Shown: piece after piece, positions 21,724-24,746 of the stretch
Layout: every line of letters starts with the position of its first letter
Numbering within the stretch: position 1 is the stretch's first letter
Source of the DNA: Promicromonospora citrea
GTDB taxonomy: Bacteria > Actinomycetota > Actinomycetes > Actinomycetales > Cellulomonadaceae
Length of the DNA: 38,582 bases
Reading direction: 5' to 3'
NCBI RefSeq assembly: GCF_013004695.1
Contig: NZ_JABEMG010000032.1
Coordinates: 1-38,582, forward strand
Position numbers and translations under genes: made by a program
Notes under the pieces: generated by a model
The model's input: the letters and a program-made list of their open reading frames with translations, nothing else
Told to the model about the DNA's origin: nothing
Databases searched by the model: none

Positions 21724-22047
21724 ATGTGCCGGAACATCACCACGCTGCGCGGGCTCGAGCCCGCCGCCACCGACGAGGAGATCACGGCCGCCGCCCTGCA
21801 GTTCGTGCGCAAGGTGACGGGTGTGACCAAGGTCAGCGACGCGACGCGCGAGCCCGTGGAACGGGCGACCGCCGAGGTCGCCGACATCGTGACGCGCCTG
21901 CTCGACGAGCTGCCGGCGCGCCGCCGTCCGCCCACGAACGTCCCGCCGCTGCGCCGCCCCGAGGTCCAGGCGCGCATCGCGCAGCGGATGAAGGAGCGCG
22001 AGGAGCACGAGCGGATGCACGAGCTGGGCATCGCGCACTCGCACTGA
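21724..22047 (+). CDS. DUF2277 family protein
   Basis: A 107-residue protein of the DUF2277 family. It begins 'MCRNITTLRGLEPAATDEEITAAALQFVRKVTGVTKVSDATREPVERATAEVADIVTRLLDEL', where the MCRNI start and the 'QFVRKvtG.tkps' block are diagnostic. The C-terminal part is charged and ends in a His-rich tail 'HERMHELGIAHSH'. The function is unknown. ATG 21724 has TACCGT 6 nt upstream and no ribosome binding site, so it is leaderless. It is divergent from the GntR gene and precedes the Cys leader peptide by 26 nt, although that leader has its own -10 box. Confidence 0.88.
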   Translation: MCRNITTLRGLEPAATDEEITAAALQFVRKVTGVTKVSDATREPVERATAEVADIVTRLLDELPARRRPPTNVPPLRRPEVQARIAQRMKEREEHERMHELGIAHSH

Positions 22048-22061
22048 CGGGGCCGTCCGGC

Positions 22062-22067
22062 TACAGT
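22062..22067 (+). promoter_or_regulatory. -10 box of the Cys leader / cbs-metB transcript
   Basis: TACAGT lies exactly 6 nt before the GTG of the leader peptide at 22074. This is the TAnnnT spacing expected for a transcript that begins at the start codon. Confidence 0.7.
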
Positions 22068-22073
22068 GGCGCC

Positions 22074-22106
22074 GTGCTCACCACGCTCTCCTGTTGCTGT
22101 CACTGA
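22074..22106 (+). CDS. Polycysteine leader peptide (cysteine-sensing uORF)
   Basis: A ten-codon open reading frame, MLTTLSCCCH with a GTG start. It encodes three consecutive Cys (TGT TGC TGT at 22092-22100) followed by His and TGA. It is leaderless, with TACAGT 6 nt upstream. It precedes the cystathionine beta-synthase gene by 65 nt, with no other gene between. In mycobacteria, leaderless short ORFs with consecutive Cys codons are established cysteine-responsive attenuators of sulfur genes, and this one has the same layout. Cys is one of the rarest amino acids, so three in a row in a ten-residue ORF before a cysteine-metabolism operon is unlikely to be chance. No product function is expected; ribosome progress is the signal. 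Confidence 0.85.
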   Translation: MLTTLSCCCH

Positions 22107-22165
22107 CCCTTCACCAGGCCGTCAGTCCCCCCGCGCGCGCCGTCGCGCGCACAGAACAGGAAGAG
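22086..22165 (+). promoter_or_regulatory. Translation attenuator: Cys codons paired with the cbs ribosome binding site
   Basis: CTCTCCTGTT (22086-22095), which includes the first Cys codon, is complementary to AACAGGAAGAG (22155-22165) around the cbs Shine-Dalgarno AGGAAG. There are seven contiguous pairs (22089-22095 with 22155-22161) and three more after one bulged A. Between them lie hairpins ACTGAC/GTCAGT (22102-22107 with 22121-22126) and GCGCGCG/CGCGCGC (22133-22139 with 22144-22150). A ribosome stalled on the Cys codons would hold the left arm and free the ribosome binding site. Confidence 0.7.
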
Positions 22166-22171
22166 ATACAG

Positions 22172-23539
22172 GTGCAGTACGTCAACTCTGTCGTCGAGCT
22201 CGTCGGCAACACCCCCCTGGTCCGGCTCGGCCACGTCACCGAGGGCGTCACCGATGCGACGGTGCTCGTCAAGCTCGAGTACCTCAACCCCGGCGGCTCC
22301 TCCAAGGACCGCATCGCGGGCCGCATCATCGACGCGGCCGAGCGTGAGGGCAGGCTCCGGCCCGGCGGCACCATCGTCGAGCCCACCTCGGGCAACACCG
22401 GCGTCGGCCTGGCGCTGGTGGCCCAGCAGCGTGGGTACCGCTGCGTGTTCGTGCTGCCGGACAAGGTGGGCGAGGACAAGCGCAACGTCCTCACCGCGTA
22501 CGGCGCCGAGGTCGTCGTCACGCCCACGGCCGTCGCGCCCGACAGCCCCGAGTCCTACTACTCGGTGAGCGACCGCCTGGTGCGCGAGATCCCGGGCGCC
22601 TTCAAGCCCGACCAGTACTCCAACCCCAACGGGCCGCGCTCCCACTACGAGACCACCGGTCCCGAGATCTGGCGGGACACCGAGGGCCGCGTGACCCACT
22701 TCGTCGCCGGCGTCGGCACGGGCGGGACCATCACGGGCACCGGCCGGTACCTGCGCGAGGTCTCGGGCGACCGGGTGCGCATCATCGGCGCCGACCCCGA
22801 GGGCTCGGTGTACTCCGGCGGCACCGGCAGGCCCTACCTCGTCGAGGGCGTCGGCGAGGACTTCTGGCCCACCGCCTACGACCCGACCGTGCCGCACGAG
22901 ATCATCGCCGTCAGCGACGCCGAGTCGTTCGCGATGACGCGCCGCCTCGCCCGCGAGGAGGGCATCCTCGTGGGCGGCTCGAGCGGCATGGCCGTCGTCG
23001 CGGCCCTCGAGGCGGCGCGCGACCTCACCGCCGACGACGTCGTGGTGGTCCTCCTGCCCGACGGCGGCCGCGGCTACCTGGGCAAGATCTTCAACGACAC
23101 CTGGATGCGGTCCTACGGGTTCTCCCCCGCCATCGAGGACCACACCGTCGCCGACGTGCTGGCCGCCAAGGCCGACCGCACGCCGCCCGTGCTCTACGTG
23201 CACCCGACGGACACGGTGCGCGAGGCGATCGACCGCATGACCCGCAGCGGCGTGTCCCAGCTCCTCGTGCTCACGGCCGAGCCGCCCGTCGTGCTCGGCG
23301 AGGTCGCGGGCGCCGTGCACGAGAAGGACCTGCTCGACCGCGTGTTCGCCGGCACGGCGAACCTCTCCGACGAGGTCGGCGGCCTCGTCGGGCGGCCTCT
23401 GCCGCTCATCGGCGTCAACGAGCCGGTCGGCGCGCTGCGCGCCGCGCTGGCCGACGAGACCGCGCTGCTGGTCACCGACGGCGGCAAGGCCCTCGGCGTC
23501 GTCTCGCGCGCCGACCTGCTCGACTACCTCGCGGTCTGA
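22172..23539 (+). CDS. cbs: Cystathionine beta-synthase
   Basis: A 455-residue PLP enzyme of fold type II with a C-terminal CBS-domain pair. The catalytic domain (1 to about 320) has 'NPGGSSKDR' with PLP lysine K45, the substrate loop 'PTSGNTGVGLALV' and the phosphate-binding loop 'GTGGTITGTGRYL'. Two CBS motifs, 'TVADVLAAKADRTPPVLYVHPTDTVREAIDRMTRSGVSQLLVL' and 'PLPLIGVNEPVGALRAALADETALLVTDGGKALGVVSRADLLDYL', fill residues 335-455. It condenses serine (or O-acetylserine) with homocysteine, making cystathionine in reverse transsulfuration; cysteine synthase activity is a possible alternative. The start GTG 22172 has AGGAAGAG 6 nt upstream, and that site is complementary to the Cys leader. It is followed 31 nt later by metB. 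Confidence 0.94.
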   Translation: MQYVNSVVELVGNTPLVRLGHVTEGVTDATVLVKLEYLNPGGSSKDRIAGRIIDAAEREGRLRPGGTIVEPTSGNTGVGLALVAQQRGYRCVFVLPDKVGEDKRNVLTAYGAEVVVTPTAVAPDSPESYYSVSDRLVREIPGAFKPDQYSNPNGPRSHYETTGPEIWRDTEGRVTHFVAGVGTGGTITGTGRYLREVSGDRVRIIGADPEGSVYSGGTGRPYLVEGVGEDFWPTAYDPTVPHEIIAVSDAESFAMTRRLAREEGILVGGSSGMAVVAALEAARDLTADDVVVVLLPDGGRGYLGKIFNDTWMRSYGFSPAIEDHTVADVLAAKADRTPPVLYVHPTDTVREAIDRMTRSGVSQLLVLTAEPPVVLGEVAGAVHEKDLLDRVFAGTANLSDEVGGLVGRPLPLIGVNEPVGALRAALADETALLVTDGGKALGVVSRADLLDYLAV

Positions 23540-23570: not shown

Positions 23571-24746
23571 ATGACCACCCAGCAGAACCGGTTCGACACC
23601 CTCGCCATCCACGCCGGCCAGCACCCCGACCCGACCACCGGCGACGCCATCCCCGCCATCCACGTCACCTCCACCTACACGCAGGACGGCATCGGCGGGC
23701 TGCGCGGCGGGTACGAGTACTCGCGCGGCGGCAACCCCACGCGCACTGCGCTCGAGGAGCAGCTCGCCGCGATCGAGGGCGGGGCGGCGGGCATCTCGTT
23801 CGCCTCGGGCCTCGCCGCGGAGGACGCGCTGCTGCGCGCCGTCGTCTCCCCCGGCGACCACGTGCTGGTGCCGAACGACGTCTACGGCGGCACGCACCGC
23901 CTCGTCCGCACGATCCACGGCAAGGCGGGCGTCGCGCACAGCACCGTCGACACGGCCGACCTCGACGCCGTGCGGGCGGCCGTGCGGCCCGAGTCCAGGG
24001 TGCTCTGGGTCGAGACGCCGTCGAACCCGCTCATGAAGATCAGCGACATCCCGGCGCTCGCCCAGCTCGCGCACGAGCACGACCTCCTGCTGGTCGTGGA
24101 CAACACGTTCGCGTCGCCCGCGCTGCAGCGCCCGCTCGACCTCGGGGCCGACGTCGTGGTCCACTCCACGACCAAGTACCTCGGCGGGCACTCCGACGTC
24201 GTCGGCGGGGCGGTCGTCGTCGGGCACGGCAGGGACGGGAAGGGCGGCGAGGAGCTCGCCGAGCAGGTGCGGTACGTGCAGTTCGCGGCGGGCGCCGTCT
24301 CGAGCCCGTTCGACGCGTTCCTCACCACCCGCGGCATCAAGACGCTGGCCGTACGCATGCAGCGGCACTCCGAGAACGCGCAGGTGCTCGCCGAGCGGCT
24401 CGTGCACCACCCCGCCGTCGCGCGCGTGCTGTACCCCGGGCTGCCCGACCACCCCGGCCACAAGGTCGCGGCGCACCAGATGTCGCGGTTCGGCGGCATG
24501 ATCTCGCTCGACCTGGCCGGCGGCGAGGCCGCGGCGCGCGCGTTCGCCGAGTCGACGCACGTGTTCCTCCTCGCCGAGTCGCTCGGCGGCGTCGAGTCGC
24601 TGGTCAACTACCCCAGCGCGATGACCCACGCCTCGGTGCGCGGCACCGAGGCCGAGGTGCCGCCGTCGATCGTGCGGCTGTCCGTGGGGCTCGAGGACGT
24701 GACCGACCTCCTGGAGGACGTCGAGCAGGCGCTCGACCGGGTGTGA
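23571..24746 (+). CDS. metB: Cystathionine gamma-synthase / gamma-lyase
   Basis: A 391-residue fold-type I PLP enzyme of the Cys/Met metabolism family. It has 'YEYSRGGNPTRTALEEQLAAIEG' (phosphate-binding Tyr/Arg), 'FASGLAAEDALL', 'NDVYGGTHRL', 'WVETPSNPLMKISDI' and the PLP lysine K202 in 'VVHSTTKYLGGHSDVVGGAVV'. The length and motifs fit cystathionine gamma-synthase or gamma-lyase, and sequence alone cannot decide between them. Together with the upstream cystathionine beta-synthase it would give either the transsulfuration step to methionine or the reverse route to cysteine. The latter fits the Cys-responsive leader. ATG 23571 has AAAGAGA upstream at long spacing. It ends at 24746, and the next gene has its own leaderless promoter. 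Confidence 0.93.
   Translation: MTTQQNRFDTLAIHAGQHPDPTTGDAIPAIHVTSTYTQDGIGGLRGGYEYSRGGNPTRTALEEQLAAIEGGAAGISFASGLAAEDALLRAVVSPGDHVLVPNDVYGGTHRLVRTIHGKAGVAHSTVDTADLDAVRAAVRPESRVLWVETPSNPLMKISDIPALAQLAHEHDLLLVVDNTFASPALQRPLDLGADVVVHSTTKYLGGHSDVVGGAVVVGHGRDGKGGEELAEQVRYVQFAAGAVSSPFDAFLTTRGIKTLAVRMQRHSENAQVLAERLVHHPAVARVLYPGLPDHPGHKVAAHQMSRFGGMISLDLAGGEAAARAFAESTHVFLLAESLGGVESLVNYPSAMTHASVRGTEAEVPPSIVRLSVGLEDVTDLLEDVEQALDRV

What the first reader, a model, noticed from the sequence alone, without database searches (positions are those of the whole stretch)
22062..22172. Leaderless CCC leader peptide whose Cys codons pair with the cbs ribosome binding site
Directly visible: a ten-codon GTG ORF with TGT TGC TGT, 6 nt after TACAGT, 65 nt upstream of cystathionine beta-synthase. 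The segment 22086-22095 overlapping the first Cys codon is complementary to 22155-22165 around AGGAAG (7 contiguous pairs, one bulge, 3 more). Known: polycysteine leaderless short ORFs act as cysteine-responsive attenuators in mycobacteria. Inference: here it controls a cbs-metB transsulfuration operon. With enough Cys the ribosome finishes and the ribosome binding site is hidden; with little Cys it stalls and the site opens. Two further hairpins lie in between and may act as alternative folds.
Basis: partly seen in the sequence, partly recalled or inferred. Interest (0 to 1): 0.92.

Follow-up and report, generated by a model that had tools for sequence, protein, structure and literature searches.

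The report
Cysteine-sensing leader peptide before cbs-metB
A ten-codon reading frame at the start of the cbs-metB message in Promicromonospora carries three cysteine codons that fold over the ribosome binding site of cbs, so it most likely lets the cell make its cysteine-producing enzymes only when cysteine is short; the principle is known from mycobacteria, and this is a new, conserved example that may travel with its gene.

Summary
GTG 22074 to TGA 22106 (VLTTLSCCCH) starts 6 nt after TACAGT and ends 65 nt before cbs. Its Cys region pairs with the cbs ribosome binding site (fold z -4.45); forcing 22086-22100 open frees the SD. All 11 genus genomes that have this cbs carry the leader with three Cys codons in a row. 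In 110 locus rows, 32 have a promoter-adjacent Cys sORF before cbs, against 11 of 2180 shuffles. A second leaderless-looking Cys-rich leader precedes the sulfite reductase gene in 13 of 13 genus genomes but does not hide its RBS. The lock on the RBS is strong in Promicromonospora and one Leifsonia, weaker or absent elsewhere. Promicromonospora cbs nests within Microbacteriaceae, so gene and leader probably travelled together. Where the leader is missing, a -10 usually sits right before cbs itself (40 of 60 named loci). Best reading: a cysteine-responsive translational attenuator of the mycobacterial polycysteine kind; new member of a known kind. No expression data.

The parts
22062..22067 (+). 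-10 promoter element TACAGT; no -35 found by consensus scan
   Evidence: invariant in 11 of 11 Promicromonospora; one search finds no sigma-70 pair
22074..22106 (+). leader ORF GTG..TGA, VLTTLSCCCH, presumed leaderless
22092..22100 (+). three Cys codons TGT TGC TGT
   Evidence: TGT is 130 of 1908 Cys codons in 770 sampled own-genome ORFs picked by G+C at codon positions but 22 of 33 in Promicromonospora cbs leaders
22086..22100 (+). anti-RBS arm overlapping the Cys codons, pairs with 22151-22165
22102..22126 (+). inner hairpin 1, contains the leader stop codon
22133..22150 (+). inner hairpin 2 (GC-rich); two pairs with double changes in the genus alignment
22151..22165 (+). RBS arm with AGGAAG, sequestered by the leader
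22172..23539 (+). cbs, cystathionine beta-synthase (TIGR01137 over cut-off)
23571..24746 (+). metB-like PLP enzyme, cystathionine gamma-synthase family (NF005871 over cut-off), second gene of the presumed operon

Best explanation
This is a cysteine-responsive translational attenuator of the cbs-metB operon. Shown by sequence and computed fold: a -10 element 6 nt before GTG, a 10-codon ORF with three Cys codons, and a predicted stem in which those codons cover the cbs ribosome binding site, with a further helix over the start codon. Inferred: transcription starts at or next to the GTG and a 70S ribosome loads on the leaderless 5' end. With enough Cys-tRNA the ribosome finishes and leaves, the Cys-codon arm folds onto the RBS and cbs is little translated. 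When Cys-tRNA is scarce the ribosome stalls on the UGU/UGC codons, covers the arm and leaves the RBS open, so CBS and the MetB-like enzyme make cysteine from homocysteine (direction of flux is general knowledge of transsulfuration, not tested). A second Cys leader before the sulfite reductase gene probably senses the same tRNA pool but must use another read-out.
For: Leader in 11 of 11 genus genomes with this cbs, always three consecutive Cys, -10 TACAGT, spacer 6-7. 32 of 110 rows (30 of 108 without two second copies of the same records; the window itself is one of them) have such a leader upstream of cbs, against 11 of 2180 shuffles and 1 of 109 reverse strands (one row with under 200 nt upstream was left out of these controls). 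Opening energy of the RBS falls from 9.3-23.1 to 0.9-3.9 kcal/mol in the 11 Promicromonospora when the leader is masked; shuffled leaders reach this in 0-2 of 100 for 10 of 11 species and 6 of 100 for the eleventh. Forcing 22086-22100 open frees the SD bases. No intrinsic terminator in 21900-22300 and no Rfam family there at gathering score. metB lies downstream of cbs in 32 of 32 leader rows (also in 66 of 78 rows without leader, so it is not specific). Second Cys leader before sir in 13 of 13 genus genomes. Of 60 named loci without a leader, 40 have the -10 directly before cbs (no shuffle control made); none of the 20 named leader loci do. One Agromyces looks like a loss of the leader between -10 and RBS.
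Against: No transcription start, ribosome profiling or cysteine-response data. Both stem arms are nearly invariant, so covariation does not test the key stem; the RNAalifold covariation term is +0.86, and its consensus does not contain the outer helix over the start codon (that alignment included promoter bases and four rows ended at the cbs start). Across nine clades own-pairing beats swapped pairing only weakly (1893 of 20000 swaps as good). Masking beats shuffles poorly in Cryobacterium, Herbiconiux, Naasia, Occultella and G121, and in Agromyces L006 and L009. With 22086-22100 masked the cbs start codon stays paired to the leader 5' end, and with the whole ORF masked two G of the SD and the start codon find other partners in the 107-nt fold, though the RBS window then costs only about 2.5 kcal/mol to open. 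The sir leader does not hide its RBS. The TGT preference is also seen in sir leaders (43 of 61), so it is not proof of pairing.
Confidence: 0.82

Rival explanations
1. The leader senses Cys but acts on transcription: unstalled ribosomes leave, Rho or pausing ends the transcript before cbs.
For: Seliverstov et al. 2005 proposed Rho for cys leaders (section read). The sir leader of the same genome shows no RBS sequestration, so another read-out seems to exist; long spacers in Occultella (165 nt from leader stop to cbs) would suit it.
Against: Here the spacer is 65 nt and mostly paired, with no terminator, and the RBS stem is specific beyond shuffles. Rho sites themselves were not searched for.
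Confidence: 0.1
2. The short ORF is translated but unregulated: it delivers ribosomes to cbs (uORF coupling) and Cys codons are incidental.
For: Leaderless short ORFs are reported as common in mycobacteria (PMC4633059, passages).
Against: Cys clustering upstream of cbs in 32 of 110 rows against 11 of 2180 shuffles; a Cys leader also precedes sir; strong RBS occlusion in the free state.
Confidence: 0.05
3. A metabolite-binding riboswitch or T-box controls cbs and the ORF is chance.
For: A stable structured 5' region.
Against: No Rfam match at gathering score besides one tRNA in the window; ORF, -10 and Cys codons conserved while the inner hairpins vary.
Confidence: 0.02

Closest known systems
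Polycysteine leaderless sORF attenuators of mycobacteria (Canestrari et al. 2020; not held, known from recall and from passages of citing papers PMC9094748, PMC9031893, PMC13236596)
   Same: Leaderless short ORF, contiguous Cys codons, upstream of a cysteine-metabolic operon; translation attenuation in which a stalled ribosome unmasks the SD (as summarised in PMC13236596).
   Different: Other lineage (Promicromonospora and Microbacteriaceae), other gene (cbs-metB; whether cbs is among their six loci I do not know), a 10-codon ORF; no expression data; gene and leader seem to have moved together.
Predicted Cys leader peptide upstream of cbs in Bifidobacterium longum (Seliverstov et al. 2005, PMC1262725, passages and one section)
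   Same: Cys-run leader before cbs in an actinobacterium.
   Different: No RNA structure was given there (Rho suggested); here an RBS-sequestering fold and a -10 next to the start codon are seen.
uORFC-8-2 motif before cysS in Rhodobacterales (PMC8632094, passages)
   Same: Tandem Cys codons in a short ORF.
   Different: Intrinsic terminator, transcriptional attenuation, proteobacteria.

Membership tests
Leaderless polycysteine translational attenuator (mycobacterial kind) | Consecutive Cys codons near the 3' end of a short ORF | tested here: met
   TGT TGC TGT in 11 of 11 genus genomes with this cbs
Leaderless polycysteine translational attenuator (mycobacterial kind) | Leaderless transcript (start codon at the 5' end) | tested here: inconclusive
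   -10 6-7 nt before the start in 11 of 11; no start-site data
Leaderless polycysteine translational attenuator (mycobacterial kind) | Precedes a cysteine-metabolic operon | tested here: met
   cbs and metB-like gene
Leaderless polycysteine translational attenuator (mycobacterial kind) | Leader sequesters the downstream RBS; a stalled ribosome opens it | tested here: met
   In silico only, Promicromonospora; not general in other genera
Leaderless polycysteine translational attenuator (mycobacterial kind) | Downstream expression rises when cysteine is limiting, dependent on Cys codons | not testable with these tools
   needs reporter or ribosome profiling
Classical transcription attenuator | Terminator hairpin with U-run | tested here: not met
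   0 found in 21900-22300
Rho-dependent leader | Rho loading site between leader and gene | not tested
   no Rho-site search was made; spacer is 65 nt and mostly paired
Known riboswitch or T-box | Match to an Rfam family | tested here: not met
   at gathering score only a tRNA elsewhere in the window

The most novel reading that the evidence does not exclude
The Cys leader and cbs-metB form a self-regulating cassette that passed from Microbacteriaceae into Promicromonospora (and, by tree position of a long branch, perhaps a second time into another genus of the window's family, G121), and cbs switches in evolution between two 5' ends: a leaderless cbs without attenuation, and an attenuated form in which a Cys leader takes over the leaderless position. 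The read-out has diversified, with the Cys codons themselves acting as the anti-RBS in Promicromonospora.
Probability: 0.5. Interest if true: 0.58.

Novelty: new member of a known kind. Interest (0 to 1): 0.47.

Why it matters
It extends cysteine-sensing leaderless attenuation from mycobacteria to Promicromonospora and Microbacteriaceae and to the transsulfuration operon, with a compact 107-nt element in which the sensing codons are also the RBS lock. It explains why this RBS is buried, offers natural controls (relatives with an apparently leaderless cbs, one apparent leader loss), and suggests that a gene can carry its own amino-acid sensor across families without a regulator protein.

Tried and rejected
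Rejected: intrinsic terminator, Rfam riboswitch, inner hairpins as alternative folds, general Cys-codon/RBS pairing in all genera (not significant), RBS sequestration by the sir leader (the largest drop on masking in 13 loci is 3.0 kcal/mol and several rise; in L136 and L143 the start used is wrong, and in L137 and L139-L141 the match starts one codon late). No Cys leader was found in the stretches taken around the cysK-like locus, the second PAPS-reductase-family locus, the other NIR_SIR locus and the five NMT1-family loci. My first scan of these missed the sir leader because it capped length; it was seen by eye and the scan was widened. search_dna_similar on plasmids gave only distant hits (up to 64.5% identity) and was not used. 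Start offsets: L005 and L009 were not shifted to their true cbs start, L009 not, and L009 was set 3 nt too far upstream. One search aligned the Agromyces humi junction badly; the loss was read from the raw sequence, and that contig is short (7774 bases), so misassembly is possible. The AU test names a group chosen after its odd similarity was seen.

Papers: Canestrari 2020 is not held; what I say of it is recalled or from citing papers. Searches for prior print: in the open-licence library only; three of the five lists were cut at 20 (of 43, 570 and 88 papers), and apart from the six papers opened I saw titles and abstract starts only. In what I saw, only PMC1262725 names a cbs Cys leader.

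Full report
What is there. The window is contig C217 of a 4.96-Mb genome. Its nearest named relative at cbs is Promicromonospora thailandica, 97% identical. Between a DUF2277 gene (21724-22047) and cbs lies TACAGT 22062-22067, six bases, and a ten-codon ORF GTG 22074 to TGA 22106 reading VLTTLSCCCH. cbs (TIGR01137 over its cut-off) and a cystathionine gamma-synthase family gene (NF005871 over its cut-off) follow on the same strand.

Fold. The 107 bases from the leader start to just inside cbs fold at -47.5 kcal/mol against -31.8 (sd 3.5) for shuffles, 0 of 200 as good. The two inner hairpins are nested in this fold. Forcing 22086-22100 open frees the SD bases but leaves the start codon paired to the leader 5' end; forcing the whole ORF open lets two G of the SD and the start codon find other partners. 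In a model of a ribosome with the first Cys codon in the A site (5' end masked to 12 nt past that codon), the cost of opening the RBS falls from 14.2 to 2.5 kcal/mol in the window and from 9.3-23.1 to 0.9-3.9 across the 11 Promicromonospora. Shuffling only the leader ORF reaches the observed change in 0-2 of 100 for 10 of these 11 and in 6 of 100 for L085.

Conservation. The genus search holds 13 genomes; 11 have this cbs and all 11 have the leader with CCC, TACAGT and a 6-7 base spacer. RNAalifold on these 11 finds 35 pairs, 3 with a double change; two of those are in the second hairpin, one in a helix I do not claim; the covariation term is slightly unfavourable (+0.86) and the outer helix over the start codon is not in the consensus. 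The sequestering stem is nearly invariant, so it is neither supported nor refuted by covariation. Among 80 named relatives (the best 80 of 585) and 30 loci of the family search (105 of 150 genomes matched, only the 30 loci returned were examined), 32 of 110 rows have a promoter-adjacent sORF with at least two Cys upstream of cbs; two rows are second copies of the same records (judged by equal contig length and leader), and one row is the window itself. The same detector gives 11 of 2180 on shuffles and 1 of 109 on reverse strands. Genera: Promicromonospora, Agromyces, Leifsonia, Cryobacterium, Herbiconiux, Humibacter, Naasia, Occultella, one unnamed Microbacteriaceae and one unnamed genus of the window's own family (G121).

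Limits of the pairing. Own-leader against own-RBS duplexes beat duplexes swapped between nine clades only weakly: 1893 of 20000 swaps were as good. Masking beats shuffles in Leifsonia L010 (0 of 100), is borderline in Humibacter and three of five Agromyces (7-13 of 100; L006 and L009 are 63 and 59, L009 with a window set 3 bases off), gives 13-16 in L011, L016 and L019, and is not seen in Occultella, Naasia L054 and L063, two of three Herbiconiux-group loci, Cryobacterium L024 and L028, or G121 (27-60 of 100). So the leader is widespread, but the exact lock is shown only for Promicromonospora and near it.

A second Cys leader. Upstream of the sulfite reductase gene of the same genome is a 35-codon ORF ending ACDRCRSCLH, ATG 7 bases after TACCGT. 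A Cys-rich ORF of this kind is present in 13 of 13 genus genomes. Its masking does not open the sir RBS, so its read-out differs. In all, 1.80 Mb of the own genome was scanned (36%); the cbs and sir leaders are the only hits with three or more Cys, and 6 others have two, non-adjacent Cys. The sir stretch was fetched on purpose, so only the 1.67 Mb are a fair background; 64% of the genome was not scanned. TGT is 130 of 1908 Cys codons in 770 sampled ORFs chosen by codon-position G+C but 22 of 33 in Promicromonospora cbs leaders, 41 of 49 in other cbs leaders and 43 of 61 in sir leaders; since sir leaders share it, this may reflect slow decoding rather than pairing, and the rows are related.

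Evolution. In a tree of 108 CBS proteins, Promicromonospora sits inside a clade of Agromyces, Leifsonia and Cryobacterium (SH-aLRT 99 at the 23-row and 18-row nodes; 88 for the node that joins it to five Agromyces), away from 18 other loci of its own family, which have no leader; G121 groups with Humibacter, which has one (quick tree; G121 is a long branch). Holding the family together costs 156.5 log-likelihood units, p-AU 1.5e-5 (the group was chosen after its similarity was seen). The leader needs at least 8 changes of state on the tree. Of the 80 named loci, 20 have the leader; of the other 60, 40 have a -10 5-9 bases before cbs itself, 9 have one within 60 bases, 11 have none (no chance control was run for these counts). 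None of the 20 leader loci has a -10 within 60 bases of cbs. In Agromyces humi L007 the -10 is followed almost at once by the conserved RBS, as if the leader had been lost. Thus cbs seems to alternate between a leaderless form and a form whose 5' end is taken by the Cys leader. metB lies downstream in 32 of 32 leader rows and in 66 of 78 others, some of whose stretches are short.

Known work. Seliverstov et al. 2005 predicted Cys leaders before cys operons and before cbs of Bifidobacterium longum, with no structure and Rho as a guess (PMC1262725, passages and one section). PMC4633059 (passages) proposed Cys-rich uORFs in mycobacteria, and PMC9094748, PMC13236596 and PMC9031893 (passages) cite the later demonstration by Canestrari et al. 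2020, which I could not read. The mechanism proposed here is theirs; the element, the gene context, the lineage and the apparent co-transfer are what is added.

Verdict. A cysteine-responsive translational attenuator is by far the best reading; regulation itself is unproven. New member of a known kind.

Noticed in passing
L123:4629-4522 (minus strand), own genome contig C31: Leaderless-looking Cys-rich 35-codon leader before the sulfite reductase gene, in 13 of 13 genus genomes; its read-out is unknown because its masking does not open the sir RBS.
   Followed up: partly
L007 upstream of cbs: Agromyces humi looks like a natural loss of the leader between the -10 and the RBS; short contig, may be misassembled.
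   Followed up: partly
L026, L034, L057, L070 and 36 other named loci: cbs itself seems to be leaderless, with a -10 5-9 bases before its start codon.
   Followed up: partly
L068, L069, L082: Actinobacterial cbs loci in records titled Vibrio cholerae 35D and Sporosarcina (probably mislabelled or contaminated records), and a Rhodococcus record that the tree tool's lineage look-up put under Cyanobacteriota (probably a homonym).
   Followed up: no
window 21724-22047 (+): DUF2277 gene whose end lies just before the leader promoter; the same end sequence is seen in other Promicromonospora.
   Followed up: no
G087 and G123: Two of 13 genus genomes have no match to this cbs at E 1e-100 but keep the sir Cys leader.
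   Followed up: no
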